Positions 536 through 16,674 of a DNA stretch of 64,000 bases are shown in pieces. The notes beneath the pieces are model-generated. The model was not told the DNA's origin. It made no database searches and saw only the letters and a list, made by a program, of their open reading frames with translations. Position 1 is the stretch's first letter; the number at the start of each line of letters is the position of its first letter. The stretch lies in the IMG/VR virus record IMGVR_UViG_3300026488_000015, positions 62,001-126,000 of that record; one strand, given 5' to 3'. A program made the position numbers and the translations under genes. This DNA comes from a virus.

Positions 536-1297
536 CTATTTTTCAAATACCCAATCTTCTTTCTCTTTAGGTTCAAACTCTAAGAAAGTCATATTAACTG
601 CTATAGATTTTGGTTTTGCACCATCACTTAAACCCATCGTACCATCAGCACCGTAGTTTATATCCATAGATGCCAAGGCACATAAATCAAACTGTATAAC
701 TCTATTTATATGCGATTTTTCTCTACCAAATCGTAAACTAAATAATCTAGGTGGGGCTTGAAAAACTTCATTTGCTGCAGTAGAAGCAGTACCTTGTGTT
801 GCATTAGCTGATTCTGATTTCCCTCCCTCTGAAGAACCAATAGGTCCTCCTGGTAGCATATCAGCTTTAAGGTTTCTCAAAGCTGATTCTATATTATCAA
901 AAATTGTTTCTGTTTCAGCATTCAATAAAAAAGAAACAGAAACGCTTCTAGGCACTTGTCCTTTGTATGTCTGAGCATAAAATGGTTTGATACCAAAACC
1001 CGTGATACCTTGTAACCCTCTTGCTGCTTCTGATAAACCACTCATTACTGAAGAGGTTAGTGAATTCTTGCTCCAATTTTGGCTGTAATCATCATCGATT
1101 GTTAGAGGCATAGGAAAATTATATGTTTTAACGCTATCTCCTGCAGCATCTTTGAGAGCTGTTATAACGCTCGATGATTTATCAGTTGTAAAAAAGTTCT
1201 CGATTAATGTGGATAAGTTTATGTTATAGCTACTAATCGTAAGGACTCTATCTGGTACTAAATCTTTACCTACTTTGAATATTGCTTTTCCTGCCAT
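536..1297 (-). CDS. gp48-like tail tube/baseplate junction protein, copy 2
   Basis: 253 residues. The C-terminal third carries the pattern FSLRFG, then a Cys-containing beta strand, then YGADG, then a DGxP-like turn and NMTFLEFEP. This pattern is typical of T4 gp48-type baseplate cap and tube-initiator proteins, which seat the tail tube on the hub. It is a clear paralog of the gene at 1297-2085, with the same C-terminal architecture and a Gly/Ala/Ser-rich middle. The start codon overlaps the stop of that gene (TAATG), which indicates translational coupling. T4 needs two related cap proteins (gp48 and gp54), so the pair may divide those roles. Confidence 0.5.
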   Translation of the reverse strand: MAGKAIFKVGKDLVPDRVLTISSYNINLSTLIENFFTTDKSSSVITALKDAAGDSVKTYNFPMPLTIDDDYSQNWSKNSLTSSVMSGLSEAARGLQGITGFGIKPFYAQTYKGQVPRSVSVSFLLNAETETIFDNIESALRNLKADMLPGGPIGSSEGGKSESANATQGTASTAANEVFQAPPRLFSLRFGREKSHINRVIQFDLCALASMDINYGADGTMGLSDGAKPKSIAVNMTFLEFEPKEKEDWVFEK

Positions 1298-2085
1298 TAT
1301 TTATCTCCCCAATCAGATTTATCTTTTGGTGCATATTCAGAAAAAGTTAAGGAAAGCGTACTCATTTTAGGAGTTAATCCATCTTCTGTTATGAACATAG
1401 CCATACTCCCATCTACACCGTATGATACTTTTGCAGATGTTAGTACACAAGCACTAAAGTTTATATTGTTATTTAGAAAAGAACTATCTTCACCAAAAGT
1501 TAAACTAAAAATATCAGGAGAAGATAAAAATATTCTACCAAATCCAGGTGACATAGCATTTTTGATGGCTATGATTCCTTCTGTAATAATGTTTGCTTCT
1601 TCCTCATTCTTAGGCATAAATGAAAACATCAAAGAAATACTTCTTGGTTCGTTCTCTCTAAATGTTAAATATGAGTTCGGGTTCACTGCTTCACCTTGTA
1701 CTGAAGCAATCTTAGTTGCAACACCAGACATTCCTTTGACTAAGGCTGCTATTTTTCCAGTTGCTTTGGCTACACCAGTCGAATTTCCATTTTTATCTGT
1801 CATACCAGCACCTGCTGCTCCAGCTTTATCGGCCATCCCTTGTGCTGCTCCAGTCAAACCAAAACCTTCCCAACCTACTGAAGAATTATCATTGATTACA
1901 TTAGGTAAAGGTAAATGCCAAGTCTGTGTGGCAGTACCTAATTCCCCTTTAATACCGTCTTTCTTCGATGGGGTACCTTTAAGTAGCTCCTTGTATAAAC
2001 TCATACTCCATTTAAAACTCTTCAATACCACAGTTCTATTTGTGATGATTCCATCTCCGTTTTTGTCAAACATTTTGAATGCCAT
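1297..2085 (-). CDS. gp48-like tail tube/baseplate junction protein, copy 1
   Basis: 262 residues. The N-terminus KMFDKNGDGI looks like an EF-hand-type DxNxDG turn but lacks a full loop. The middle, about residues 70-125, is Gly/Ala/Lys-rich. The C-terminal part has SLTFGEDSS, then YGVDGSM, then TLSLTFSEYAPKDKSDW, matching its downstream neighbour and T4 gp48-type proteins. It sits directly after the tape measure gene (4-base gap), the position gp48 has after gp29 in T4. The specific gp48 versus gp54 assignment cannot be made from sequence. Confidence 0.5.
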   Translation of the reverse strand: MAFKMFDKNGDGIITNRTVVLKSFKWSMSLYKELLKGTPSKKDGIKGELGTATQTWHLPLPNVINDNSSVGWEGFGLTGAAQGMADKAGAAGAGMTDKNGNSTGVAKATGKIAALVKGMSGVATKIASVQGEAVNPNSYLTFRENEPRSISLMFSFMPKNEEEANIITEGIIAIKNAMSPGFGRIFLSSPDIFSLTFGEDSSFLNNNINFSACVLTSAKVSYGVDGSMAMFITEDGLTPKMSTLSLTFSEYAPKDKSDWGDK

Positions 2086-2088
2086 TTG

Positions 2089-5000
2089 TTATGCTCCCTT
2101 TTCTAGTTTAGCATCTTTGATACTAGTATTATGTGTAGCACCTGCACTCGTTGTAGATGTAGTGTTTTGTATTTGAGGTGTTTTATTCTGTTTTACTTCT
2201 GCTCTCGTTTGTTTGTGTGACTCAACGAGTGCTACGACAGCTGGGTCAGGCTTCTTCTCATATTTTGTGAATGCTGTTGCTTTAAGACCAGAATTCTTAA
2301 ACATTTCTTGATAAGCTTCATTAGCGGCAGCACCAGTTTCATAAGATACTGGTTGTTTCGTAGTACCTTCTGTGAATGTCTTGCTATCCTTCTTAGTAAT
2401 CGTTTGGCCTTCTGAATCGATACTAACACCACCTGATACTGGTGCCGGTGCTGTTCCATCTTTTCTGTATTGTTTCATACCATTATCTCTAATACTTTTT
2501 CTGTCAATACCCAAAGGCTCAACATGCCAGGTTTCAGAAGCAACGATAGGTCTCCAAAAACCATATTTTCTGAATAGGTTCGCTTTGATTGCATCATTGG
2601 CATCTACCGTCTGAATATCGAATGCTAGACCATAGTTGTGCATTGATTTCCCTGGTGATGCAGCCTTCTTTCCTTTTCGTTTCTTCATATCAGCTTGTTC
2701 TTCAAAGCTTCTGAATGCTGAATTAACTTGCATCTTACGACCAGTGATTTCTTTAAATTCCATTGCCATACCTTTAAGGTTATGGAGAACATTTTCATCA
2801 AGACCTTCGATGTCGTTGTTTCCGTTGTTAATGAATAATTCTTTGAGTGACATATCATCTGTCGTTCTAACTTGACCGGCATCTGTATAGGTAACTTTCT
2901 TAGGTGTGTACTCGACACGACCTGAATAGTTACTCATTACATTAGCACCACCTTCGTTATCAAAAGTAGTGAAGCCTGATATATTATCCCTTTCTGTTTC
3001 TCTGCTTTTAAGAAACATAGCAATCTGGTGAGAAAGACTATCTCTCTTCCCTTCTATTTTAGTTTTCCTTTCTACATAAGTAGCTAAGCTTGACCACTGT
3101 GATAGAGGTATGCTTCTCATTTCTATCAAATCTTTTATTACTAATGGTTTGGCTCCCCAAATACCGGCATTATTAACTATAACAATACCCTCTTTCACTA
3201 AACCGGCAAGAAATTCTTCCATATTTTTATTCTTTAATTTTGATAGTTTATCTAGTTTCGATTTCGATGTTGCCATTACTTTTGTGTATATAGCTAATGA
3301 ACCATCTTCTAGTGCTACTTGTTTTGAATATGTAGCTTTATCTTCAAAATCTGTTCCTGAATCTCTTACTATTGCATCATCAGCACCATTTTTAAGGAAT
3401 TGTTTCTGGATAAATTTCTTTCTGTCTTTTTCTGTTAGGTCTTTACTAAGGGCCTTATATTCTTTAGTCCCAACAGCTCTTCCAGACATTTGTTTCATTA
3501 TACTATGGCTTTTCTTAATTTTTGCATCTTCTTCAGCTAAATTGTTTTGATTGTCTGTAACACCATTAATGATAGCTATCATTTTATCGCCTTCATTAGC
3601 AAATAAACTCTCATCTTTTACTCTATATTTAATATCGTTAATTAACTCAGCTCTTTGGTTCTCATCTAGGTATGTTGTGATATACTCTCTGAATCTTGAT
3701 TTCTTATATACAATACCATCATTTGTATTGTTAGGGTTCACAATATCTGCATCAATCATTGCTTCATAAATATCATCACCACTAGCATCTTTACGAACAG
3801 CATCTAATGTAGCTTTCTTACTCTTATCTTCAAATCTCATAGTAGTTTTTTTAGATGTTATTATACCAGTCTTAGCATTTTTTACTAATTTTGTACCGCT
3901 CGTACCGAATATAGCCATAGCTTCTTCACCATATTGTAATACCGCTGGGTCAGATGCTCCAAATTTTTCTCTTCTCACCATAATAATTTTTAAGAAATCA
4001 TCATTATTACCTTCGATGTAGCTCATAGCTTTGTCGAATTCTTCTAACGAAAGCTCTTCACTCGTTATAATATATTTAACGAAATCTTCCTCTGGTGATG
4101 AACCCCATAACCAAGAAGCCTGTGATGTCCCTAGTGCCGCTATACTTTTAGCTATTACAGCAACTCGTTTCTCGTAATTCGGGCCGAAAATATTTTTCGT
4201 TGCATTTCTGATTTCCACTGCATCTACAGCTAGTAGAGCACCAGTGATTAAACCAGCTGTTAAGACACCACCAATCTTGAATACTGATTTACCTAGACCC
4301 TTTACTCCTTTAAAAGCAGTTTTAAAGAATCCACTCTTAGCCATTTTAGGTTTGAAATGATTTGCTTTGGGTTTAGGTGTACTCCCTTTTTTTATAGTAG
4401 ATTTAGTATCACCAGACATCTTAGTTTTTCTTTTTTGTTCTGTTTCCATTCGTTTTTTGTTGGCTTCTGATTTCTTCTGCTGTTTGTCTTTACTATTTTG
4501 TTGCTGTTGTTTTTTCTTGTCGTTACCTTTTTTATTCTTCTTATCTTTTTTATCAGGCATACAACCACAACCAGACATAACCCCACGACCTTTCCCTTTA
4601 CCTCTTCTTCTACTAGAATTATTTCTTCGTTGGCTTCTATTTCTTTTTCTGTCTCTTTTGGATTGTTTTTTATCATTCTGGCTATTCTTTTTGTCTTTAC
4701 CTGGGCCTTCAGGCATATCCATACTTTTTGAAGAATTCAATAAATTTTTACCAAATACAGCTTTCCAAACCTTGTTAATCATTCTCTTAGCAAATCTTAG
4801 AGCTTTCTTAACCATTATCTTAAATTTTCTGAACATTTTCTTGAATGGAGCCAACAGCTTACCGAACATTTTCTTAACCATCGGACCTATCTTTTTCCAC
4901 AGCTTCGTAGCCAATAGACCTAATCCAGCCATTATCATATCCCATATCGATGTGTCTTCATCATCTTTTATGGCTTTACCATTTTTATCAAATTTTTGTT

Positions 5001-6237
5001 TTTTGTCTTTCTTGCCTTTTCTATCGATTGAAGTATCTTGCTCATCAACCATCTGGTCAGCAATCTTTTCTAGGTTCTCATTAATGCTTTCAGAAAGCTT
5101 AATCATTTTCTTAGAATCATCAGCTGTATAATCATTATCATTTAGAGAATTTTTGATACCCAATGAAGCTCCTAATGAACCTAGCATACCGTATTGCTCT
5201 TCCTTCTTTTCTTGTGTTTCTTTCTGTTTTTTCTCTTTAAGCTTATCAGCTGGAGTCGGGTTCTTTTCTGAATCTTCTTCTGTTTTTTGTCGTTCTTTAT
5301 CGTTAGCTCTAGCTTGTTCTACATCATCGCTTACACCGAAGGCATCAGTAATGTATTGGTTACCTAAGCTAGAAATAAAATCATCCTTAGAAATACTAGA
5401 ATAACCATATTTCTTTCTAATGTCATTGTGCATCTTCATCAAAGCTAATGTTTCATTTTGTACCATATTTCTAGCATCATTTTGTTCATTAATATTATCT
5501 ACTGTGTATGCATTACTAACCAGTGTAACATATTTGTACATATTAACGCTTTTATCGAGAACCATTTTCTGGCCTCTCGTTTCTTGGTCTAATGAATCAG
5601 TAACCTTATCTAATGTATCACCAGAGAATTTTAAAGCAGAAGATTTTACTGTATCTTGTGCTCTCTCCATTAGAGAACCTTTTTCTGATTTCTCTGCTAG
5701 TGAATCTTCTTTCTCTTTGATTTTAGATTGTAGTTTTAGTGTTTTCTTCTCATCGCCAGTAATTTTAGCTACTTCTAGTTCTTCTTCGAGGTCTGATAGT
5801 CTATTCTGGCTTCTCTCTCGTGATTCTCTTGTATTGAATAAAGCACCGATTGATTCTGATGCAAGATTTTTGATAGCATCAAGTGGGCTATCTATCATAT
5901 CAGAAAGTTTTTTGTGTTTCTTCTCTTTTAGATTATCTACTTTTTCTCTATCTGATATAGCCTTATCTAAATCAGAAAGTTTTTCTGGTGTTCCTGATGT
6001 TTCTATGCCGTCTGTTTTTTTCTGTTGTATTGCTACTTTTTTATCGTGTTGTGCTCTAGCAATGAATAAAGTGGTTAATAATTGTTTTGTTTGTGTGAGT
6101 TCAAGCTCAATAGTATCTGAAGGTTGACCTTGTTCTTTTTTCGAGGCTATAGATTTTTCTATTTTAGCCATACTCTTATAAGAATCTTCAAGCCTAGTGT
6201 TAATATCTATTATATTTTGTTGGTCTTGTGCGTTCAT
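2089..6237 (-). CDS. Tape measure protein with M15 peptidase domain
   Basis: 1382 residues, by far the largest gene here, in the gp29 position between hub-assembly-like genes and gp48-like genes. The N-terminal third is charged coiled-coil. Residues of about 500-640 are extremely Lys/Arg/Gln-rich, with a CGC cluster. A hydrophobic stretch follows near 660-690 (VFKIGGVLTAGLITGALLAV). Residues of about 1150-1245 form a VanY/M15 peptidase: SMHNYGLAFDI supplies His and Asp and ETWHVEP the second zinc His. The C-terminus is Pro/Thr-rich and disordered. The protein should set tail length and locally cut murein during DNA entry. A GATAAATA late box lies 22 bases upstream of the start. Confidence 0.7.
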   Translation of the reverse strand: MNAQDQQNIIDINTRLEDSYKSMAKIEKSIASKKEQGQPSDTIELELTQTKQLLTTLFIARAQHDKKVAIQQKKTDGIETSGTPEKLSDLDKAISDREKVDNLKEKKHKKLSDMIDSPLDAIKNLASESIGALFNTRESRERSQNRLSDLEEELEVAKITGDEKKTLKLQSKIKEKEDSLAEKSEKGSLMERAQDTVKSSALKFSGDTLDKVTDSLDQETRGQKMVLDKSVNMYKYVTLVSNAYTVDNINEQNDARNMVQNETLALMKMHNDIRKKYGYSSISKDDFISSLGNQYITDAFGVSDDVEQARANDKERQKTEEDSEKNPTPADKLKEKKQKETQEKKEEQYGMLGSLGASLGIKNSLNDNDYTADDSKKMIKLSESINENLEKIADQMVDEQDTSIDRKGKKDKKQKFDKNGKAIKDDEDTSIWDMIMAGLGLLATKLWKKIGPMVKKMFGKLLAPFKKMFRKFKIMVKKALRFAKRMINKVWKAVFGKNLLNSSKSMDMPEGPGKDKKNSQNDKKQSKRDRKRNRSQRRNNSSRRRGKGKGRGVMSGCGCMPDKKDKKNKKGNDKKKQQQQNSKDKQQKKSEANKKRMETEQKRKTKMSGDTKSTIKKGSTPKPKANHFKPKMAKSGFFKTAFKGVKGLGKSVFKIGGVLTAGLITGALLAVDAVEIRNATKNIFGPNYEKRVAVIAKSIAALGTSQASWLWGSSPEEDFVKYIITSEELSLEEFDKAMSYIEGNNDDFLKIIMVRREKFGASDPAVLQYGEEAMAIFGTSGTKLVKNAKTGIITSKKTTMRFEDKSKKATLDAVRKDASGDDIYEAMIDADIVNPNNTNDGIVYKKSRFREYITTYLDENQRAELINDIKYRVKDESLFANEGDKMIAIINGVTDNQNNLAEEDAKIKKSHSIMKQMSGRAVGTKEYKALSKDLTEKDRKKFIQKQFLKNGADDAIVRDSGTDFEDKATYSKQVALEDGSLAIYTKVMATSKSKLDKLSKLKNKNMEEFLAGLVKEGIVIVNNAGIWGAKPLVIKDLIEMRSIPLSQWSSLATYVERKTKIEGKRDSLSHQIAMFLKSRETERDNISGFTTFDNEGGANVMSNYSGRVEYTPKKVTYTDAGQVRTTDDMSLKELFINNGNNDIEGLDENVLHNLKGMAMEFKEITGRKMQVNSAFRSFEEQADMKKRKGKKAASPGKSMHNYGLAFDIQTVDANDAIKANLFRKYGFWRPIVASETWHVEPLGIDRKSIRDNGMKQYRKDGTAPAPVSGGVSIDSEGQTITKKDSKTFTEGTTKQPVSYETGAAANEAYQEMFKNSGLKATAFTKYEKKPDPAVVALVESHKQTRAEVKQNKTPQIQNTTSTTSAGATHNTSIKDAKLEKGA

Positions 6238-6274: not shown

Positions 6275-6970
6275 TTATTGTGCGTTTTCTTCTTCTCTAG
6301 CTTTCTCTATTAGACTAAAATAAATTTCTCTCTCGAATGGTAGCATATTATATACATCTTGTAAAGCGAATTTTCCATAATAAGTGAATTCCTGAGCTTG
6401 TTGATATACATTACCTATACTGCTTTTCGATAAATCTGCCTTATAAAAATTATAACAATCCTTGATGTCGATATGCTGGCATTTTATACAAGGCATTTCA
6501 CAAAGAATCGACAACCCATCAGCACACAGCTTATCCATTTCTTGAGCACTCAAAAAATCCATTTCCTCGATATAGTACCTAGCTTCGTCGCTATCCAATT
6601 GCACATCATTATGATACACGGTGTTGTCGCCTACATTAATTTTGTATTCTCCGTCCTGGTAGAACACTTCCTCAGTATTGTATTTAATAAACGGGTCTAT
6701 ATTAATGGTATTTTCGTTAGGTTGTGAGCATTCCGAGCATTTATACTGAACCGTGAAATCTCCACCTACACTATTCACATAGGTTTTGTATAGGATGAAT
6801 AGCATATCTTCATCAGTAAGCTTTAAGGGTGTAGGTGTGATTTTTACGAGAAGCTTATAAATGTCTCTGATACTAGCACCATCTCCGTATAGGAGGTATG
6901 CCATTTCGTCCCTCGTTGTCCAAGGTTCTATATTGTATTCAGTACCCTTTAGCTCTAAACTAAAAAACAT
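6275..6970 (-). CDS. Baseplate hub assembly protein, gp26/gp51-like, copy 2
   Basis: 231 residues, acidic, with two Cys pairs that could bind zinc: CSEC near residue 79 and CIKCQH near 161. Two tandem proteins of about 230 residues with embedded zinc ribbons, next to the tape measure gene, match the T4 gp26/gp51 baseplate-hub assembly family found in many T4-like phages. Such proteins help assemble the central hub and may not remain in the virion. The start overlaps the stop of the upstream paralog by one base (TAATG). The family call rests on size, Cys pattern and gene order. Confidence 0.45.
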   Translation of the reverse strand: MFFSLELKGTEYNIEPWTTRDEMAYLLYGDGASIRDIYKLLVKITPTPLKLTDEDMLFILYKTYVNSVGGDFTVQYKCSECSQPNENTINIDPFIKYNTEEVFYQDGEYKINVGDNTVYHNDVQLDSDEARYYIEEMDFLSAQEMDKLCADGLSILCEMPCIKCQHIDIKDCYNFYKADLSKSSIGNVYQQAQEFTYYGKFALQDVYNMLPFEREIYFSLIEKAREEENAQ

Positions 6971-7677
6971 TATAAAGTACCGAAAAAGTTTGGAAGAACA
7001 TCAAATTCTAAATTGTGTTCCTTATTACAGCCCTCTGTTTGGCATTGATAAGTACCAGTAATATCAAAATAACTCATTTGTTTAACATATTCTTCTAGTA
7101 ACTGCTCATAATCGCTCATATCTAAGTCGCTGATGTACTCGAACATTTCTTCAAAAGTGTACTCGTTTTTGATTCCATCAGCATCTTCAAAAGAATTTAC
7201 CCTAAGAACCATTTCAATAATAGTAGCATCATCTTCAAGATATTTTCCCTCTTGTGCTGAAAGAACCTCAGCTTTAATATCTTTTTGGAGATTAAAAGTA
7301 ATATCGCCTATTACTATTTTTGCGAAAGTATCTGGTTCAAAATTACTACATTTAGCTAAATCCACATCGATTTTTGTATTCTCTTCACATTTAGGGCATA
7401 AATAATCGAATTTAATATTGTTACCTAGTGTGTTTTTTCTAATCTGTGTAAGCATATATAAGAGGTCGTAGTTTGAAAGGTATTCTCCCTCGTAATCTTT
7501 AACACAAGGTAGAACCAATGTACGGAGTTGTTCTTCGGTTAGCATTTCAATATCGAACGAATTTTCTAAGACTTCATTGAATGACTTAACATCACGACCT
7601 TTCCATTTTCTTAGAAACATAGGTTTATCGTGCATTTCTATTTCAATATCGAATTTATCTTCTTTCTTAATACTCAT
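6970..7677 (-). CDS. Baseplate hub assembly protein, gp26/gp51-like, copy 1
   Basis: 235 residues, the paralog of the downstream gene. It has CPKC near residue 98 and CQTEGC near 217, and an acidic helical middle. The N-terminal phrase KWKGRDVKSFNEVLE, followed by LP and a YDLLYMLTQIR segment, parallels the neighbour's TRDEMAYLLYG and LFILYKTYV. It is the first gene of a short run behind a GATAAATA late box at 7700-7707. The role in hub assembly is inferred from family resemblance and position. Confidence 0.45.
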   Translation of the reverse strand: MSIKKEDKFDIEIEMHDKPMFLRKWKGRDVKSFNEVLENSFDIEMLTEEQLRTLVLPCVKDYEGEYLSNYDLLYMLTQIRKNTLGNNIKFDYLCPKCEENTKIDVDLAKCSNFEPDTFAKIVIGDITFNLQKDIKAEVLSAQEGKYLEDDATIIEMVLRVNSFEDADGIKNEYTFEEMFEYISDLDMSDYEQLLEEYVKQMSYFDITGTYQCQTEGCNKEHNLEFDVLPNFFGTL

Positions 7678-7699: not shown

Positions 7700-7707
7700 T
7701 ATTTATC
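7700..7707 (-). promoter_or_regulatory. Late promoter box variant, hub assembly genes
   Basis: GATAAATA on the - strand, 23 bases before the start at 7677. Confidence 0.55.
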
Positions 7708-8246: not shown

Positions 8247-8254
8247 TATTTATA
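8247..8254 (-). promoter_or_regulatory. T4-like late promoter box
   Basis: Exact TATAAATA on the - strand, 20 bases before the start at 8227 and overlapping the end of the upstream gene. Confidence 0.75.
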
Positions 8255-8734: not shown

Positions 8735-10666
8735 TTAACCGATGATTGTATCAATATCAGTCGAAGCATTAACAGCAGTGAATCTAAGAGTAATAAATTC
8801 AGCGATGTAGTTAGGTTTAACAATGATGTCTGCAATGAACTCGTTTTTCTCAACGATAGCAGGCGTGTTGTTAGACGCATCACAAATTGCTCTGTACTCA
8901 TTAATACCACGGTTACTTTGAACTGTGTTAAGGAATGGAACGATAGCACTTAAAAATCTGTTTCTTGTGAAAGAATCATTGATTTCGAATGTGAAAGATT
9001 TTGAAGTCTTATAGATTACTCTTTCAAGGTAGTTGAATAAAGCTCTTGTAGTAACTCTATCAAATGCACTTGGTACAGAAGTATAAGTCTTGTTACCCCA
9101 AATAACATTTCCAGAACCTGGGAATGAAGTTACGATATTTGTCTTGTTTTGGTACATAGCGTCTCTTTGAGTCTTGTTTGGAATGAAAGCGAATTTCTTA
9201 ACATTCTTAACGCCACCTCTTTGAATACCTGCTGCTGCAGTCCACGGATTTTGTAACTCATTAGTCTGAGCTCTAATTCCAGCCATATCTCCTGCAAGAT
9301 TTAACCATACATTTTTACCAGTGAATTTATCGAATTGGAACTTGTAGTTACCATAAAATGCTGCATAAACAGTATTTACATTCATATCTCCAGCTTTAGT
9401 GTAATCAACGATTGCTTGAGTAGCATTGATTGAAGTTTTACCAACAGTATCTTCAAATCTAGCACCAACATAAGCGATACAATCTCTTCTCATATTTGCT
9501 AAGTTAATAGCTGAAACTGGTGAAAGTTCATTAGCGATAATTAAATCAACATCGATTTCATCAATATTTTCATATAATTTGTAACCATCAATGATTTCTG
9601 CTTGAGTAGCCATACCGTTATTACCACCAGCGAATTCAACTGTATCAGCTGTAATTACACCATCTTGTGAATACATCTTAGAAGCAACACCATCAACGGC
9701 ACCGTTATCTTTAACATAAACAAGATTAGATTTTTCATTTATAACATTTTCGATGTAAGTTGATTTATTTGCATAATCAACAGCACTTTCATCTAAAGAA
9801 ACGATATAAGTTTCAACAACGATATTGTCCTTAGTGATAAGAACGGCAACTTCTCCTGCTGCAGCAGCATATTCGAATTGGTCATCGATAGTAACACCTG
9901 AGAATGCTTCTGAAGGAGTAGCTGTACTGAAATCTGATGCGTTAGCAATAGATACTTCTAAATTATCTCCCCAAACACCTGGGTTTCTAGCAAAGAATTT
10001 AAGTTTTGAACCTGCGTCATCTGTAAGTGCACTAATAGTTTCAGTTACAACATCTAATTGATATGGAACACCTGGTACATAAGCACCACCACCATCAGTA
10101 TAACCAGCAACGATTGCACCAAATCCAACTTTTGTAAACTTACCTGCACCTTCGATAGTGTAAATTACGCCGTCTTCTAAAGAAACAGTCGTAGCGTCAT
10201 CTGCTAGTGATAATTGAGTACCATTAAGTGAAACACCTAAATCAGTTAAAGAAACAAGAACATCTCCTGACTCATCTACACCGAATTGAACTCCACCTAA
10301 TGAGAACACATCCCAATCAGATTTATTCTTAACAAGTTGTGGTGTAGCTGTGATATGTGCGTCATTTGCTACAGAACCGATTTCTGCTACTGAATTAAGT
10401 GCGTCTGCACCAACTACACGAGTTACATAAGAAAAACCTGCACCGTAGTTAAGGAAGTTATAACCTTGATACCATTGATTCATAATACTTGAATTTGGTT
10501 TACCGAAAACTGTTACATAATCATTTGTTGTTCCGATTGCTGTTAATTCATCAACTGGACCTTTTACGAAATCACCAACAAATACTGCTGCTGAATTACC
10601 TACACGATTTGTTACAACCGATGCATCTATTTCTACTACTTCTGAACCTGGGCTTAATAATGCCAT
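8735..10666 (-). CDS. gp18: Contractile tail sheath protein, gp18-like
   Basis: 643 residues, close to the T4 gp18 length. It begins with the sheath N-terminus (PGSEVVEIDASVVTNRVGNS, then AVFVGDFVKGP). The conserved C-terminal sheath domain runs from about 480 to 640 (SFPGSGNVIWGNKTY, FNYLERVIYK, then IIVKPNYIAEFITLRFTAV). The subunits form the contractile tube around the gp19 tail tube. The gene has its own late box at 10818-10825, a leader of about 150 bases with palindromes, and a hairpin separating it from the tube genes, as expected for a very highly expressed gene. Confidence 0.92.
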   Translation of the reverse strand: MALLSPGSEVVEIDASVVTNRVGNSAAVFVGDFVKGPVDELTAIGTTNDYVTVFGKPNSSIMNQWYQGYNFLNYGAGFSYVTRVVGADALNSVAEIGSVANDAHITATPQLVKNKSDWDVFSLGGVQFGVDESGDVLVSLTDLGVSLNGTQLSLADDATTVSLEDGVIYTIEGAGKFTKVGFGAIVAGYTDGGGAYVPGVPYQLDVVTETISALTDDAGSKLKFFARNPGVWGDNLEVSIANASDFSTATPSEAFSGVTIDDQFEYAAAAGEVAVLITKDNIVVETYIVSLDESAVDYANKSTYIENVINEKSNLVYVKDNGAVDGVASKMYSQDGVITADTVEFAGGNNGMATQAEIIDGYKLYENIDEIDVDLIIANELSPVSAINLANMRRDCIAYVGARFEDTVGKTSINATQAIVDYTKAGDMNVNTVYAAFYGNYKFQFDKFTGKNVWLNLAGDMAGIRAQTNELQNPWTAAAGIQRGGVKNVKKFAFIPNKTQRDAMYQNKTNIVTSFPGSGNVIWGNKTYTSVPSAFDRVTTRALFNYLERVIYKTSKSFTFEINDSFTRNRFLSAIVPFLNTVQSNRGINEYRAICDASNNTPAIVEKNEFIADIIVKPNYIAEFITLRFTAVNASTDIDTIIG

Positions 10667-10817: not shown

Positions 10818-10825
10818 TATTTATA
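10818..10825 (-). promoter_or_regulatory. T4-like late promoter box
   Basis: Exact TATAAATA on the - strand, about 150 bases before the sheath start. This is the longest late leader in the window. Confidence 0.75.
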
Positions 10826-10851: not shown

Positions 10852-10872
10852 ATAGTCCAAGAAAAGGACTAT
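10852..10872 (-). terminator. Hairpin terminator after the tail tube genes
   Basis: ATAGTCC and GGACTAT form a 7-bp stem with a 7-base loop just beyond the stop of the tube gene at 10886. A T-rich stretch follows some 12 bases later on the - strand. It probably limits read-through from the tube genes into the sheath gene, which has its own promoter. Confidence 0.5.
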
Positions 10873-10885
10873 ATAGTGTGTTTTG

Positions 10886-11404
10886 TTATAATGCTACTGG
10901 AACTGCACTGTCGAAAGCAAATGTTACAGTAAAAGTACCTACTGTGTTTACTTCCGAAGCATCCATTGACATTTCACCAACTGCTTGAGGCCACATATTT
11001 AATAATGTGTAAGCTCCACCAAAGTGATTTGTACTACCGTCATTTTGTAATTGTTTAATAGTAGCTGTACTTACATAAGTGTAGTTATGCATATCAAGCA
11101 CATCATCATCCATTAACCGCATCCATAAAAGAAAAATAGTTCTTACTCTATGGTCTGAAGTTTCATAGAATGTTACTTCAAAAGTGTTACCGTAATCAGT
11201 CATACCTTGTAGTAAAGTTTTACGACCCCTAAGAAATGCTTCAACCATTGGTATATTTTTTCCAGGGAATGCAGTACTCTTAGCTAGAAGGCTACCTATC
11301 TCTTTAAAAATATCTACACCAGGTATAGCTTGGAATTGTACTTCGAATTTATTTGTTCTAGCTCCACTTCCAAGTGCTCTCTTAAGGTCGCTTATTTTAC
11401 TCAT
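10886..11404 (-). CDS. gp19: Tail tube protein paralog, gp19-like (1)
   Basis: 172 residues. It shows the gp19 tail-tube pattern: an N-terminal helix with TNKFEVQF, then STAFPGKNIP, FLRGRKTLLQG, FEVTFYETSDHRVR, a helix with WMRLMDD, and the final TVTFAFDSA strand. Tube subunits stack as hexameric rings inside the sheath. It is the tube copy nearest the sheath gene and is followed by a hairpin terminator. Which of the six paralogs is the main tube subunit cannot be told from sequence; the three at 10886-12532 are closest to canonical gp19. Confidence 0.75.
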   Translation of the reverse strand: MSKISDLKRALGSGARTNKFEVQFQAIPGVDIFKEIGSLLAKSTAFPGKNIPMVEAFLRGRKTLLQGMTDYGNTFEVTFYETSDHRVRTIFLLWMRLMDDDVLDMHNYTYVSTATIKQLQNDGSTNHFGGAYTLLNMWPQAVGEMSMDASEVNTVGTFTVTFAFDSAVPVAL

Positions 11405-11408
11405 CTAT

Positions 11409-12011
11409 CTATCCGTTAGTTGTAGTTGTAGTTGTAACGGTATCTTTTTTCAGTTTCCAGTAATCGAATGATAAAGTTACTGTGAACTCACCAATAGCAT
11501 TAACTGAATCATTTGCCATATCTAAAGTACTGATAACCTGAGGCCATATATTATGGAATGTATATGTCATTGTAGGGTTACCTTGACCATCTAGTTGTGA
11601 AATAGTGGCTGTACCACCAACACTACGGTCATTTTTGTTGTACCCTTCTACATCATCGATACTATCTTGCCAAGCGATAAACGCTTCACGAAGCTTGTGG
11701 TCTTCTGTTTCATAGAAAACTAAGTCCCAAGTGTGGTCGAATTCTGTATCACCTACTAGCATACCCTTTTTACCGCCTACCCAAACTTCCGTTTGACCTA
11801 CAGTTTTTTGTGGGAATGATGTACCTTTACATAGCAAATCAAGTTGTGTAGCATCAGTAGTTGCTGTTTGTGTGATTTTGCCATCCACTTGTACTTCTGC
11901 CGTATCGTTAAACGATGTAATAGCAGTATTTGTAGGTATAATCTGTACTAAATATTTTGTTGTTCTTAAACCAGCACCTAATGCTGATTTTAAGTTTGAA
12001 ATTGCGCTCAT
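11409..12011 (-). CDS. gp19: Tail tube protein paralog, gp19-like (2)
   Basis: 200 residues. It has the same architecture as its neighbours: SNLKSALGAGLRTTKYLVQI at the N-terminus, then LCKGTSFPQKTVGQ, VGGKKGMLVG, DLVFYETEDHKLRE and GEFTVTLSFDYW. Compared with the 12035 copy it has about 20 extra residues near 35-55 (a Thr/Gln-rich loop) and a Thr-rich C-terminal tail. The very high similarity to the 12035 copy indicates a fairly recent tandem duplication. Confidence 0.75.
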   Translation of the reverse strand: MSAISNLKSALGAGLRTTKYLVQIIPTNTAITSFNDTAEVQVDGKITQTATTDATQLDLLCKGTSFPQKTVGQTEVWVGGKKGMLVGDTEFDHTWDLVFYETEDHKLREAFIAWQDSIDDVEGYNKNDRSVGGTATISQLDGQGNPTMTYTFHNIWPQVISTLDMANDSVNAIGEFTVTLSFDYWKLKKDTVTTTTTTNG

Positions 12012-12034
12012 AGAAGCCTCCTTATGATTTTATG

Positions 12035-12532
12035 TTAGTTCTTTTCCCAAAAATCAAAAGAGAATGTTACTGTGAACTCACCAATAGCATTAACTGAATC
12101 ATCAGCCATATCTAATGAACTAACAACTTGCGGCCATAAGTTTGTGAACTCATACTCAGCAGTTTCTTTACCTGCACCGTCTAGTTGAAATACTTTAGCA
12201 GTTTTCATTTCTGTTTCATCGATGTGTGTATTTGTTTTAGTATCATCGATAGCCTTCATCCAAGCAATAAATTCTTCTCTTAGTGAATGGTCTTCTGTTT
12301 CGTAGAATGTAACATCCCAAGTATAATCGAATTCTGTTTCGCCTTGTAACATTGCCTTACGACCTTGTGACCATACTTCAACTTGACCTATTGTAATCTG
12401 TGGAAAGTTTGTTGCTTTACATAATGTATCAATAGTTGCTAATGCACTTGGTGTATTTATGTTTACTTTGTATTTTGTTGTTCTAACTCCACTACCTAAT
12501 GTAGTTTTTAAATCTGAAATTGCGTTTGCCAT
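12035..12532 (-). CDS. gp19: Tail tube protein paralog, gp19-like (3)
   Basis: 165 residues, the most compact copy and the one closest to standard gp19 length. It carries SDLKTTLGSGVRTTKYKVNI, LCKATNFPQITIGQ, WSQGRKAMLQGETEF, DVTFYETEDHSLRE and the final GEFTVTFSFDFW. A perfect TATAAATA late box lies at 12569-12576 with a good ribosome site, so this copy heads the transcript for the three canonical tube genes. It is the best candidate for the major tail tube protein. Confidence 0.8.
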   Translation of the reverse strand: MANAISDLKTTLGSGVRTTKYKVNINTPSALATIDTLCKATNFPQITIGQVEVWSQGRKAMLQGETEFDYTWDVTFYETEDHSLREEFIAWMKAIDDTKTNTHIDETEMKTAKVFQLDGAGKETAEYEFTNLWPQVVSSLDMADDSVNAIGEFTVTFSFDFWEKN

Positions 12533-12568
12533 ATTTCTTCTCCTGTTTTGTGTGTTTATTTACAACTG

Positions 12569-12576
12569 TATTTATA
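12569..12576 (-). promoter_or_regulatory. T4-like late promoter box
   Basis: Exact TATAAATA on the - strand, 36 bases before the start of the tube gene at 12035-12532. Confidence 0.75.
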
Positions 12577-12591
12577 TCTTCTATATACTAC

Positions 12592-13191
12592 CTAAAATAA
12601 ACTCATAAGTCCACCAGCAGCATCTTCTGTTTCAAAAAAACTGTATGCTAGTGTGATAGTACTTGTAGTTAATTCGGATGTATTTGTGCCATCTAAAGTT
12701 AAATCAGAAATAGCAGTAGGATAAACCCCCATATATGTATGGACTAGGCTCGTTGAACCTATTAAATCTACTAATGCTTTCTTTGTCTTTGGTGTTATTT
12801 TAATTGTAGCATCGTAAGGATTAAGATAATCAGAACCCTTAACGGCATTCAACCAATTCATAAAGAATCTTCTAGTTGTAAGCTCTCTATCATTATAATA
12901 TTCTAACTCTATTGTACCCGAATAATCATCCTCTCCAGCAACAACATATTTTCTACCCCTATGATGATATTCAGTAGTAGTAAGATTCTTACCTGGCAAT
13001 GTTACTTGTTTACAAAGAACATTAATTTTAGGCGAAATATCACTACCTATACTAGCAAGCGAATCCAACATTCCACCTGATGGGTATTCTACCTCATCTG
13101 CAAGACTACCTAAGAATATTTCGACATCGTAATCATTTCCTTGAAAACCACCTGATAAATTAAATTGTAGTGTGTATGTGTTTAAAAACAT
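12592..13191 (-). CDS. Tail tube-fold protein, divergent gp19-like (4)
   Basis: 199 residues. The fold pattern is recognisable: a first beta strand (YTLQFNLSGG), LCKQVTLPGKNLT, YHHRGRKYVVAG, GTIELEYYNDRELTTRRFFMNW and a final STITLAYSFFE strand. It has a long Asp/Gly-rich insert near residues 15-55 and no N-terminal helix. Its ATG overlaps the upstream stop. It is more divergent than the three canonical copies and may be a minor tube, tip or adaptor subunit. Confidence 0.6.
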   Translation of the reverse strand: MFLNTYTLQFNLSGGFQGNDYDVEIFLGSLADEVEYPSGGMLDSLASIGSDISPKINVLCKQVTLPGKNLTTTEYHHRGRKYVVAGEDDYSGTIELEYYNDRELTTRRFFMNWLNAVKGSDYLNPYDATIKITPKTKKALVDLIGSTSLVHTYMGVYPTAISDLTLDGTNTSELTTSTITLAYSFFETEDAAGGLMSLF

Positions 13192-13727
13192 TATTTTTTC
13201 TCCTCTTCAATATCTGATTTAGTGAATAAACTAAAAGCAAATGTTACTGTGAACTCTAATAGTTCATTATTTTCTGAACTTAATGATACAGCACTTATTT
13301 CTGTTGGAAAAGAATTTAAAAATGTGTATTCTATATACTCTTTATTGTCATCTATCATACCACTTGAGCGTTTATGGACAACTTTTATGTCTTGGTATAC
13401 TTTTTTCTCGTTCGTATCTGATTTATCGGTATCGTATTCTTCAGAATAGAATTGCATCCACTTCATAAAGTTTTCTCTAAGACCATCTTCTGTCATATAA
13501 AATGTTATTTCTGTTGTGTTCTTATATGATACTTCTCTAGCAATCGGATATTTTACACCGTTCCAGACTTTCTCTATTTGTTTTCTTTCTATACTAGGTA
13601 GCTCAACACTTTTTGCTGAATATACTACAATAGCGGGATTCAATATACCTTCATCCATTCCAGGAAATATCACTTCAAACCTATTAGCACTGGCAAATTT
13701 GTTTATTATCGTATTAATATTAATCAT
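13191..13727 (-). CDS. Tail tube-fold protein, divergent gp19-like (5)
   Basis: 178 residues. Features: ASANRFEVIFPG, SAKSVELPSIERKQ, VWNGVKYPIAREVSYK, TEITFYMTEDGLRENFMKW and the final LLEFTVTFAFSLF strand. The Arg-x-Phe N-strand and the R-x2-F-x2-W helix are shared with every paralog. It resembles the 13738 copy most, especially the NGVKY(P)I-R-EI/V segment. An adaptor or tube-initiator role is possible. Confidence 0.6.
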   Translation of the reverse strand: MININTIINKFASANRFEVIFPGMDEGILNPAIVVYSAKSVELPSIERKQIEKVWNGVKYPIAREVSYKNTTEITFYMTEDGLRENFMKWMQFYSEEYDTDKSDTNEKKVYQDIKVVHKRSSGMIDDNKEYIEYTFLNSFPTEISAVSLSSENNELLEFTVTFAFSLFTKSDIEEEKK

Positions 13728-13737
13728 ATATCATCTC

Positions 13738-14292
13738 CTAAAATAGTAAATCTAATAGACTGCCACCAGATGAGGCTTCTTTTGATTCTGCAGTTGAACT
13801 TGTGCTCGTTTCTTTAACCCAATTATATCCGAATGATACAGTAAATTCAGGTATTTCTATCGAGCTTGATGATAATGCAATCTCGCTCACACTCTTAACA
13901 AACCCATCAGAAAATGTATTAACTGTAAAACTATCAGGCACATCAATATCGTTATTGGTCATTTCTGAATTTGTCTGTTGAGTTACAATAATGTTTAAAT
14001 CTTTTACATCAGTGCTCATCATTGTTAGGAATGCTTCTCGGATATTTTCGCTCTCATCTTGTATAAAAGTCATTGACACTTCATTTGTAAAAGCAATCTC
14101 TCTAGGTATTACATATTTTATGCCGTTCAACCAATACTCTGCTTCATTTCTCGTTTGTTCAACTAATCTTAAATCTTTACATAATGTGTCTATAGCTAAA
14201 TCTACATCAGTTCCTGTTATTTGTAGTGAATATCTATTTGATGAAGCAAGATTCGGTAAAACTACTGTCAATACATCTGTTATTAATGCCAT
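13738..14292 (-). CDS. Tail tube-fold protein, divergent gp19-like (6)
   Basis: 184 residues. Features: ASSNRYSLQI, LCKDLRLVEQ, YWLNGIKYVIPREIAF, VSMTFIQDESENIREAFL and IPEFTVSFGYNWV, followed by a Ser/Glu-rich tail. It is the first of the six tandem tube-fold genes in transcription order and abuts the gp15-like gene (2-base gap), so it probably shares the late promoter at 15388. Being next to the terminator gene suggests a distal tube or joining role (inference). Confidence 0.6.
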   Translation of the reverse strand: MALITDVLTVVLPNLASSNRYSLQITGTDVDLAIDTLCKDLRLVEQTRNEAEYWLNGIKYVIPREIAFTNEVSMTFIQDESENIREAFLTMMSTDVKDLNIIVTQQTNSEMTNNDIDVPDSFTVNTFSDGFVKSVSEIALSSSSIEIPEFTVSFGYNWVKETSTSSTAESKEASSGGSLLDLLF

Positions 14293-14293
14293 C

Positions 14294-15367
14294 TTAAACT
14301 CCTATTTCTATGCTGAAATCATAAGGTTTACTCTGTAATCCTTTATTGTCTATCACTATAACTCTTATATGTGCTGAAGAATCTTCCGTAAGATTTCCTG
14401 GTGTTACATATTTAACCTTATCTTTATTCGTTTCTATGGTACCTATATCGTTATATACACTCCATACATAAGTAAAAATATCACTATCTCTATCTTTGAA
14501 GTGGACTTTTAATACAGCACTCTTACCATCATTAAGACTTACATTTCCTGATATATGAGATATAATGGGTTCTGTATTACCATCTTCATCTTCGCTTGAA
14601 ATGTTATCTATTATAGGATTATTCTGACCCATTGTTTCGAAAAATTCTTCTTTCTTATGTGAAGTTTTATTTAGTAATTCATCTACATCAAACTCGTACT
14701 TAGCACTTCTTAGTTCTTCATCGTTGGGTTTCATACCCATATAGATTTTAACTTTTTCTACTTTCTCTGCATCTTTAATCGGTGGATACATATTACCTTT
14801 TACTAAGATACTTAATGAACCTTCGATTAGTCTGATTTCATCTTCGCCGTATTCTTCAGGTAAAACAATATCTGCACTTTCTAACATAATAGGAATACTA
14901 GTTGGTTCATCTTGAATCTCTAATTCATTAACGAAAAGAGAATAACTAGGATTAAAGAAAGGTATAATTTGTTCTTGAATCATACTCATATCCATCATAG
15001 TTCTCGTAGCAATACTAATAGTGAATGAGAAATCTACTGCAACAGCATTATACTGAAACGATATTCTTTCTCCATCAATTACTTTGTTAATTTTTGTGTA
15101 TTTGTTTGTTTGTCTTTGTTTATTTGGAGTCATACTCTCAAAAGTTAATGCCATTCTAGGTAGAATATTAACATTTCCTCTAAGCATAGCTTCAGAATCT
15201 TGTTCGCTAAGAATAAAGGCTTTATCTCTCGCACCAAAAGTGATAGGTACAGTATGATGTGTAGTGGACAGACCATCGCTAGAAACTCTTTCAATTTCTA
15301 TATCATTGAAAGTGTCTAGTAAAGCCATAGTTATTTTAGAAATTGTTTTATGGTGATAAAAGGTCAT
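14294..15367 (-). CDS. gp15: gp15-like tail terminator/sheath stabiliser with C-terminal Ig-like domain
   Basis: 357 residues from the ATG at 15367, chosen because a strong ribosome site (AAAGGAGA) and a TATAAATA box precede it; an in-frame ATG at 15418 lies above that box. Residues 1 to about 240 follow the T4 gp15 pattern: FYHHKTISKI, DTFNDIEIER, PITFGARDKAF, LPRMALTFESM, VDFSFTISI, IIPFFNPSYSLFVNE and LSILVKGNMYPP. gp15 caps the tail tube and sheath at the head-proximal end. Residues of about 270-357 form an extra beta-sandwich (FTYVWSVYND, ending NKGLQSKPYDFSIEI), Ig/PKD-like, absent from T4 gp15; it may decorate the neck. Confidence 0.75.
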   Translation of the reverse strand: MTFYHHKTISKITMALLDTFNDIEIERVSSDGLSTTHHTVPITFGARDKAFILSEQDSEAMLRGNVNILPRMALTFESMTPNKQRQTNKYTKINKVIDGERISFQYNAVAVDFSFTISIATRTMMDMSMIQEQIIPFFNPSYSLFVNELEIQDEPTSIPIMLESADIVLPEEYGEDEIRLIEGSLSILVKGNMYPPIKDAEKVEKVKIYMGMKPNDEELRSAKYEFDVDELLNKTSHKKEEFFETMGQNNPIIDNISSEDEDGNTEPIISHISGNVSLNDGKSAVLKVHFKDRDSDIFTYVWSVYNDIGTIETNKDKVKYVTPGNLTEDSSAHIRVIVIDNKGLQSKPYDFSIEIGV

Positions 15368-15387
15368 TTTGATTCTCCTTTTAGAGA

Positions 15388-15395
15388 TATTTATA
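15388..15395 (-). promoter_or_regulatory. T4-like late promoter box
   Basis: Exact TATAAATA on the - strand, 20 bases before the corrected gp15-like start. It fixes that start, because the longer reading would place the promoter inside the gene. Confidence 0.75.
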
Positions 15396-16091
15396 TTACT
15401 TATCAGGTAAGAAGCCATTAATCAAATCATTTGTTGAAAGGATATAATTATTTTGTATATTAGTAGTACCATTTTCAGAACCGTTTATGTCATCGTTCAT
15501 TTGTTCTTGACGCATATACTGCTTCAGCTTGACCTGAGTTTCTGCTACATCCTTATAGATTTTTGAAAGGAGCTGTACCTGATTAGCTACAGCTTTCATT
15601 AAGGAAGAGAATCCCTCTAATATTGTGGGAGAAATATCATCGATTGATACCATTAACATTTCATCTGTGAATTTTTTCTGAACAGCTCTACCATCAGCTA
15701 GAGAATCCAAAAGAATAGCTCTCATTTTAGCAAAATCGTTACTCAATAAATCAATATTGAATGCTGATGCTTTAATGTCCTCTGTTATTTCGTAACCAGC
15801 TTGTTTGTACTCAACAGCATCTTTCCTTACAGTATCTATACCTTCTTGTATATTGCTTGTCATAGCATCAGAGCTAACACCGAATGCGTCTGATAGCGTA
15901 TCAAATTTTGCTGCTACACCTGCTATATTTTCTTGTGAGGGGTTGTGTTCAAACTGCTCTATGATGTCGATAAATTCCTGAGTGGTTTCATCAACATCTT
16001 CTATGAGTTCTACGGTATTTACTTCTTCTAGTGTTTCTTCTAAATCACCTAGTATATCTGCTAGACCTAAATCATCTAAATTTGTATCCAT
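15396..16091 (-). CDS. Uncharacterised late acidic helical protein
   Basis: 231 residues. The N-terminal 60 residues are strongly acidic. Residues of about 90-200 form helices with coiled-coil character (KAVANQVQLLSKIYKDVAET, then QVKLKQYMRQEQM). An Asn-rich linker leads to LINGFLPDK at the C-terminus. It lies between the gp15-like and ankyrin genes and has a CATAAATA late-type box at 16123-16130. No family recognised; a structural or assembly protein of the neck or tail is likely from position only. Confidence 0.5.
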   Translation of the reverse strand: MDTNLDDLGLADILGDLEETLEEVNTVELIEDVDETTQEFIDIIEQFEHNPSQENIAGVAAKFDTLSDAFGVSSDAMTSNIQEGIDTVRKDAVEYKQAGYEITEDIKASAFNIDLLSNDFAKMRAILLDSLADGRAVQKKFTDEMLMVSIDDISPTILEGFSSLMKAVANQVQLLSKIYKDVAETQVKLKQYMRQEQMNDDINGSENGTTNIQNNYILSTNDLINGFLPDK

Positions 16092-16122: not shown

Positions 16123-16130
16123 TATTTATG
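16123..16130 (-). promoter_or_regulatory. Late promoter box variant
   Basis: CATAAATA on the - strand, one base off consensus, 31 bases before the start of the 15396-16091 gene. Confidence 0.5.
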
Positions 16131-16674
16131 AATCTAGTAAATCAGCGTATTTACCTATTTTCTTAACGGCTTTAGCGTGTTTTTCTTGTGCCTTCCAAGC
16201 CTTTTCTATAATAACTTTAATTTTAGAATTCATAGGTAGTTCACGAATTTCTTCTGTGATTTTAGCACCATTCTTTATAAGCATTCTTACTGTACCAGCT
16301 TCTGTATCATAACCTTTGAGGTGGTTACCTAATGGTGTATCTCCCCATTTATTTTCCTTAGCCCAATCCATTTTCTCATTTTTGATGACCTTAAAGAATT
16401 CTGGTTTGTCTTGTTGGAATAATGTGTGTAATACTGTTGATTGGTTGTCTTCATCTTCAGCATTTAGATTACAATCTCCACTCTTTACAAGATATTTGAA
16501 AATCTTAAACGAACCTTTATTTACTGTCGTTCTATCTAAAATATTCTGATAACCTAGATAAGCATCAAGATTTCCACCGGCTTTATGCCATTTCTTAAAT
16601 TTTGTTAAATCATCTTGTTTAATGATTTCTGATACGGTTTCTAATTCTTCGCCTTCTAATATTTCTTTTTTCAT
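16126..16674 (-). CDS. Ankyrin-repeat protein with C-terminal GKYADLL tail
   Basis: 182 residues. About four degenerate ankyrin units are visible, for example GSFKIFKYLVKSGDCNLNAE, ATVLHTLFQQ-type and DTPLGNHLKGYDTEAGTVRM followed by LIKNGAKITEEI. The chain ends KKIGKYADLLDS, the tail shared with the proteins at 49361, 49870, 50193 and 57721. Ankyrin repeats bind proteins, so this is likely a host- or virion-interacting effector. It sits directly downstream of the terminase and has a GATAAATA late box 20 bases upstream, so it is made late. Confidence 0.7.
   Translation of the reverse strand: MKKEILEGEELETVSEIIKQDDLTKFKKWHKAGGNLDAYLGYQNILDRTTVNKGSFKIFKYLVKSGDCNLNAEDEDNQSTVLHTLFQQDKPEFFKVIKNEKMDWAKENKWGDTPLGNHLKGYDTEAGTVRMLIKNGAKITEEIRELPMNSKIKVIIEKAWKAQEKHAKAVKKIGKYADLLDS

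What the first reader, a model, noticed from the sequence alone, without database searches (positions are those of the whole stretch)
10886..14292. Six tandem tail-tube-fold genes
Six adjacent proteins of 165-200 residues have the gp19-type layout (strand, xFPx, GxK, TFY, R-x2-F/W helix, final (T/S)xxFxF strand). T4 needs one tube protein here. Three are close to each other (10886, 11409, 12035) and three divergent (12592, 13191, 13738), with a possible seventh at 7703. The tube may be a heteropolymer, or be built from zones with different subunits, or the divergent copies may be adaptors.
Basis: seen in the sequence. Interest (0 to 1): 0.62.

Follow-up and report, generated by a model that had tools for sequence, protein, structure and literature searches.

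The report
Expanded set of phage tail-tube genes
A virus of bacteria related to phage T4 carries six neighbouring genes for variants of the protein that forms the inner tube of its tail, an enlarged form of a three-gene set that many relatives share, which suggests that these tails contain several kinds of ring rather than one repeated part.

Summary
Six intact, adjacent minus-strand genes (T6 to T1 in transcription order) are homologous to one another and to the T4 gp19 tail tube; T6, the most divergent, is predicted to have the tube fold. The suspected seventh at 7703 (T7) is also a tube-fold homologue. T4 is not a one-paralogue phage: its gp3 terminator and gp54 junction protein fall in the same family (phrog_45). 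Here gp3 lies elsewhere in the record and two gp48-like caps are present, so the six are extra.

Comparative loci explain the array. At least 58 other loci carry exactly one gene each of three anciently separate tube types, A, B and C; 51 of them also hold one T7. The window keeps the order A-slot (T6, T5), B (T4), C (T3, T2, T1), sheath: C has tripled and the A-slot probably doubled. A T4-like late-promoter motif lies just upstream of C in 41 of 48 loci and never of B. C evolves slowest and is sister to canonical gp19.

Best model: C is the main tube; B, A and T7 form minor rings at special positions. Several tube types per virion preparation are documented in Campylobacter phages (2010, 2012); their arrangement is unknown. 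New variant of a known kind.

The parts
13738..14292 (-). T6, tube-fold paralogue, most divergent of the six, in the A-slot (first of the array)
   Evidence: homologous to T1-T5; AlphaFold pLDDT 80.8, PDB matches are tail tubes; pairs with T5 at 100/97 support; family scores ambiguous
13191..13727 (-). T5, tube-fold paralogue, probable A type
   Evidence: phrog_45 E=1.4e-21; A profile 87.6 bits against C 73.1 and B 53.8; A+T5+T6 as one clade not rejected, p-AU 0.375
12592..13191 (-). T4, tube-fold paralogue, B type
   Evidence: phrog_45 E=3e-29; groups with B at 95/90; B profile 98 bits against A 70, C 50
12035..12532 (-). T3, tube-fold paralogue, C type (gp19-like), candidate main tube subunit
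   Evidence: phrog_45 E=2e-39; C profile 191 bits; own late-promoter motif; codon use close to the sheath gene, 3rd of 45 ORFs
11409..12011 (-). T2, second C-type copy
   Evidence: phrog_45 E=7e-40; 52% identical to T3; a 37-nt identical run with T3 suggests gene conversion
10886..11404 (-). T1, third C-type copy
   Evidence: phrog_45 E=1e-35; orthologue in L008 at 61% identity
7703..8227 (-). T7, separate tube-fold protein beside the hub genes
   Evidence: T7 family 99% SH-aLRT; adjacent to A in most relatives; fold match, low confidence
12569..12576 (-). TATAAATA late-promoter-like motif 44 nt upstream of T3
   Evidence: motif upstream of C in 41/48 loci
15388..15395 (-). TATAAATA motif upstream of the likely true gp15 start (15367), leading gp15-T6-T5-T4
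   Evidence: start choice is inference
10818..10825 (-). TATAAATA motif between T1 and the sheath gene
8247..8254 (-). TATAAATA motif upstream of T7
10852..10872 (-). hairpin after T1, possible terminator
   Evidence: -8.5 kcal/mol, z -3.2
14294..15367 (-). gp15-like tail sheath stabiliser
   Evidence: PF16724 E=3e-43
8735..10666 (-). single tail sheath protein gp18
   Evidence: phrog_23 E=6e-89; only one in the record
1297..2085 (-). gp48-like tube cap
   Evidence: phrog_230 E=5e-29
536..1297 (-). second gp48-like tube cap paralogue
   Evidence: phrog_230 E=4e-14; 24% identical to the first

Best explanation
The array is an enlarged form of a conserved A-B-C tail-tube cassette of a large group of T4-related myoviruses. 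C-type proteins (T3, with extra copies T2 and T1) are the orthologues of gp19 and build most of the tube. The B-type (T4) and the A-slot proteins (T5, T6), and T7, form rings at special positions, most likely at the baseplate end where T4 uses gp54, which has no separate orthologue in this record. All are parts of the same tail. Shown: homology, fold of T6, orthologous groups, gene order, promoter pattern, slower change of C, a separate gp3 and gp48. Inferred: abundance order, ring positions, co-assembly in one particle, what the extra C copies do.
For: Three types are separate groups in the tree (A 95/96, B with T4 95/90; C with canonical gp19 as sister 87/83). 58 loci have exactly one each of A, B and C, 51 of them also one T7; the order T7-A-B-C is the commonest pattern. 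The window keeps the order, with T4 = B, T1-T3 = C, T5 best with A. TATAAATA lies within 70 nt upstream of C in 41/48, A 36/48, T7 36/43, B 0/48, with about 1-3 expected from shuffles; within the array of the window it precedes T3 only. C is far more conserved than A, B, T7 on the same genome pairs (median normalised bits 0.54 against 0.20-0.21; 0.46 against 0.18 and 0.15 on seven genomes not chosen by C). Codon similarity to the sheath gene: T3 0.71, T1 0.61, T2 0.59, T4 0.56, T5 0.50, T6 0.48. gp3 found at G000:20098-20559 with best hits annotated gp3. No separate gp54: the best gp54-profile hits in the record are the array proteins, T5 first. A and B types were seen in CP220 virions (PMC2853527) and three gp19-type proteins in IBB_35 virions (PMC3322345).
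Against: No structure or proteomics exists for this virus or its near kin. In CP220 the gel bands named were A and B, not C, so C as the main subunit is not shown by protein data. The link of A to gp54 is weak (hhalign score about equal to that of gp19). T6 cannot be assigned. Nothing explains why C was tripled. The record may be incomplete (no gp23 match), so a separate gp54 could be missing.
Confidence: 0.55

Rival explanations
1. Heteropolymer: rings along the whole tail contain several types in a fixed pattern (for example two each of A, B and C per hexamer in relatives, and up to six types here).
For: Exactly one each of A, B, C in 58 loci; two tube types are visible as gel bands in CP220 virions; tube rings are hexamers and T5 pb6 shows that a ring can be built from unlike repeats (PMC8718954).
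Against: C is much more conserved than A and B, and has its own promoter while B never does; A and B carry long insertions or tails that C lacks; here codon use falls from T3 to T6.
Confidence: 0.2
2. Redundant or alternative copies: the paralogues are interchangeable main-tube variants kept for dosage, variation or exchange between phages.
For: T2 and T3 show a gene-conversion-like patch (37 identical nt, permutation p 0.001); copy number differs in L008, where no T2 lies between the T3 and T1 orthologues; the CP220 authors left open whether types occur in separate virions.
Against: A, B and C are old orthologous groups, each kept as one copy across many lineages, which interchangeable copies would not be.
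Confidence: 0.15
3. Some divergent copies (T5, T6, T7) have left the tube and serve as baseplate, hub or sheath adaptors or as assembly factors.
For: T7 sits beside the gp26/gp51-like hub genes in the window and in phiKT1024; gp54 sits in the same place in Vibrio phage EniLVp02; T6-T5-T4 follow gp15 directly.
Against: T6 keeps the whole tube fold; A and B relatives are virion proteins.
Confidence: 0.1

Closest known systems
Multiple gp19 proteins of Campylobacter phages CP220, CPt10 and IBB_35 (PMC2853527, PMC3322345)
   Same: Three gp19-type genes; in CP220 they are one each of types A, B and C by the tree; at least two (CP220) or three (IBB_35) found in virions.
   Different: Genes are dispersed, not tandem; three rather than six; these phages also have three sheath genes, the window record has one.
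Tandem tail-tube genes of Vibrio phages phiKT1024, Va1, pv27
   Same: Three adjacent tube genes A-B-C plus a T7 orthologue near the hub genes (read in phiKT1024; three places each in Va1 and pv27).
   Different: One of each type; the window has three C and two A-slot copies.
T4 gp19, gp3 and gp54
   Same: All three belong to the same PHROG family as the array proteins; C is sister to gp19.
   Different: In T4 each has one gene at a different place; here gp3 is separate, gp54 has no separate orthologue found, and six gp19-like genes are tandem.
Tube proteins of extracellular contractile injection systems (PVC, AFP)
   Same: Related tube-fold proteins in a contractile machine.
   Different: Only a remote fold and profile match; no shared gene order tested.

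Membership tests
T4 gp19 tail tube (PF06841 / phrog_45) | T1-T5: sequence match to the family | tested here: met
   T1-T5 phrog_45 at 1e-21 or better; Pfam cut-off passed by T2 only
T4 gp19 tail tube (PF06841 / phrog_45) | T6: direct match to the family | tested here: not met
   no phrog_45 or PF06841 hit; but homologous to T1-T5 with tube fold
T4 gp19 tail tube (PF06841 / phrog_45) | tube beta-sandwich fold | tested here: met
   T6 model pLDDT 80.8; top PDB matches are tail tubes incl. T4 gp19
T4 gp19 tail tube (PF06841 / phrog_45) | hexameric stacked rings inside the sheath | not testable with these tools
   needs cryo-EM
A-B-C tube cassette (defined here) | members of all three clades | tested here: inconclusive
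   T1-T3 in C, T4 in B; T5 scores best with A but its place in the tree is not resolved; T6 unassigned
A-B-C tube cassette (defined here) | gene order A-B-C, late-promoter motif before C and not before B | tested here: met
   T4 (B) directly before T3 (C); motif before T3, none before T4
gp3 tail terminator | best match to gp3 | tested here: not met
   gp3 profile gives 10-36 bits to T1-T6 and 209 bits to G000:20098-20559
gp54 baseplate-tube junction | best match to gp54 | tested here: not met
   gp54 profile 7-31 bits to the six and 0.5 to T7; an equivalent role is not excluded

The most novel reading that the evidence does not exclude
The tube of these phages is built of mixed rings: A, B and C alternate within each hexamer in most relatives, and in this virus up to six different paralogues make one heterohexameric ring, giving a tail tube without true sixfold symmetry.
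Probability: 0.08. Interest if true: 0.85.

Novelty: new variant of a known kind. Interest (0 to 1): 0.5.

Why it matters
Contractile tails are usually modelled as one tube protein stacked many times. A set of four tube-fold proteins (A, B, C, T7), kept apart across many uncultured phages and in Vibrio and Campylobacter phages, argues that these tails have several kinds of ring. A question left open in print since 2010 (whether several gp19 types share one virion) becomes a concrete prediction: C abundant, A and B few and at fixed places, in phages that can be grown.

Tried and rejected
T1-T6 as gp3 terminators: rejected, gp3 is separate. T7 as a gp54 orthologue: position and fold suggest it, but the gp54 profile gives it 0.5 bits, so only an equivalent role is possible. 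Zones matched to several sheath proteins, as CP220's three sheath genes might suggest: rejected here, one sheath gene only. The count of TATAAATA over the whole window is not above chance (16 against 13); the signal is its place upstream of particular genes across loci. Pfam gp23 search of the record: nothing. Scans with terminase, gp15, sheath and T3 found no closer relative than the 3.6-kb contig L008; a scan of bacterial and archaeal genomes found none. No paper was found on mixed tail tubes in such phages. An alignment of 15 tube proteins was too diverse to scan with.

Full report
WHAT IS THERE. The window is bases 62001-126000 of a 146,525-base virus record of a T4-related myovirus: a gp15-like protein, gp17-type terminase, gp18-type sheath, gp48-like caps and gp26/gp51-like hub proteins surround the finding. 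All six genes lie on the minus strand, so transcription runs from high to low coordinates: gp15, T6, T5, T4, T3, T2, T1, sheath, a 142-aa protein, T7, two hub proteins, a 1382-aa tape-measure candidate, two gp48-like proteins. I name the six T1 to T6 by rising coordinate.

HOMOLOGY AND FOLD. All pairs among the six are linked by phmmer at about 1e-6 or better. T1-T5 match phrog_45 tail tube strongly; T6 only through its paralogues. An AlphaFold model of T6 made from 23 homologues has mean pLDDT 81, and its best PDB matches are tail-tube-type proteins, among them T4 gp19, phage P1 and cyanophage A-1(L) tubes. T7 is a remote member: with every T7-like and gp3-like sequence left out, the tube profile still finds it at E = 3e-4 in the record, the next unrelated ORF being at 0.1; its model is poor (pLDDT 61) but matches tube and junction proteins.

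T4 IS NOT A ONE-TUBE-PROTEIN PHAGE. T4 gp3 (terminator) and gp54 (junction) are also phrog_45 members, at 6e-44 and 1e-65. A gp3 orthologue is present outside the window at G000:20098-20559, plus strand; its best hits are annotated gp3 and the gp3 profile gives it 209 bits against at most 36 for T1-T6. Two gp48-like genes are present. No separate gp54 was found. So the record encodes eight tube-fold proteins of this family: six in the array, T7 and gp3.

THE A-B-C CASSETTE. A sheath profile and then a profile of the C-type protein brought about 160 viral loci. Classified with family profiles, 58 loci have exactly one each of types A, B and C and 51 of these also one T7; the common order is T7-A-B-C, often followed by the sheath gene. 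T7 is mostly on the opposite strand beside A. CP220 has the three types dispersed (CPT_0045 = A, CPT_0175 = B, CPT_0058 = C), B directly after gp15. In a 40-protein tree A, B and C are separate groups; canonical gp19 is the sister of C; T4 falls in B, T1-T3 in C; T5 and T6 pair with each other. Their joining A is not rejected (p-AU 0.375; joining C also not, 0.217), and with 22 sequences per family T5 scores best with A. Order plus scores therefore give: T6, T5 = A-slot; T4 = B; T3, T2, T1 = C. No other locus in the survey had more than three array members by these profiles.

NEAREST RELATIVE. L008, a 3.6-kb contig, has the end of a T4-like (B) gene, T3 (77%) and T1 (61%) orthologues and a sheath (74%), with no T2 between. 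So C was at least doubled before the two separated, and copy number varies. T2 and T3 share a 37-nt identical run near their 3' ends, where T3 and its L008 orthologue are only about 70% identical, a gene-conversion-like patch.

EXPRESSION SIGNALS. The T4-type late-promoter motif TATAAATA is not enriched over the window as a whole. Upstream of the cassette genes it is: C 41/48, A 36/48, T7 36/43, B 0/48, sheath 1/17, with about 1-3 expected. In the window it precedes T3 (44 nt), T7 (27 nt) and the likely true gp15 start; a hairpin follows T1. This would split the array into gp15-T6-T5-T4 and T3-T2-T1. Codon similarity to the sheath gene falls from T3 to T6, with the caution that only one reference gene was used.

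WHICH ONE IS THE TUBE. C changes far more slowly than A, B and T7 on the same genome pairs. The loci were partly chosen by C, which favours this result, but seven genomes not chosen that way give the same. With its sisterhood to gp19 and its own promoter, C is the best candidate for the main subunit. A and B carry insertions and tails that would fit special positions. The gp54 profile prefers the A-type protein in CP220 and T5 in the window, but weakly; I infer, and do not show, that A stands in for gp54.

PRIOR KNOWLEDGE. Timms et al. 2010 (PMC2853527) found at least two gp19 types in CP220 virions, which are types B and A here, and wrote that it is unknown whether types are mixed in one virion. 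The IBB_35 study (PMC3322345) detected three gp19-type proteins by mass spectrometry. Multiple tube genes are therefore known; what is added here is that they are old, distinct, singly kept types in a wide group, that T7 belongs with them, and that this virus has enlarged the set to six.

LIMITS. No experiment on this virus; no complex prediction; the record may be incomplete. T6 is unassigned and T5 only probably A. Ring positions are inference. Many survey loci are short contigs, so genes elsewhere in those genomes are not counted.

Noticed in passing
window 2089-6237 (-): The 1382-aa protein in the tape-measure position carries a VanY/M15 D-Ala-D-Ala carboxypeptidase domain near its C-terminus (PF02557, 5e-7).
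   Followed up: partly
window 536-2085 (-): Two tandem gp48-like tube-cap paralogues, 24% identical, where T4 has gp48 and gp54; the first begins with an EF-hand-like DKNGDGIIT stretch.
   Followed up: partly
window 6275-7677 (-): Two tandem PF12322 (T4 baseplate) paralogues, 235 and 231 aa, in the hub-gene position.
   Followed up: no
window 16126-16674 (-): An ankyrin-repeat-like protein just downstream of the terminase gene, inside the structural module.
   Followed up: no
L016 7083-8925 (+): A distant myovirus contig has three tandem tube genes (183, 200, 204 aa) right after its sheath gene, an apparently independent multiplication.
   Followed up: partly
window 14294-15418 (-): The gp15 ORF is probably called too long: a start at 15367 follows a late-promoter motif and ribosome site; its C-terminal part has a weak PKD-like match.
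   Followed up: partly
G000 whole record: No Pfam gp23 major capsid match in the 146.5-kb record, so it may be a fragment or have a very divergent capsid protein.
   Followed up: no
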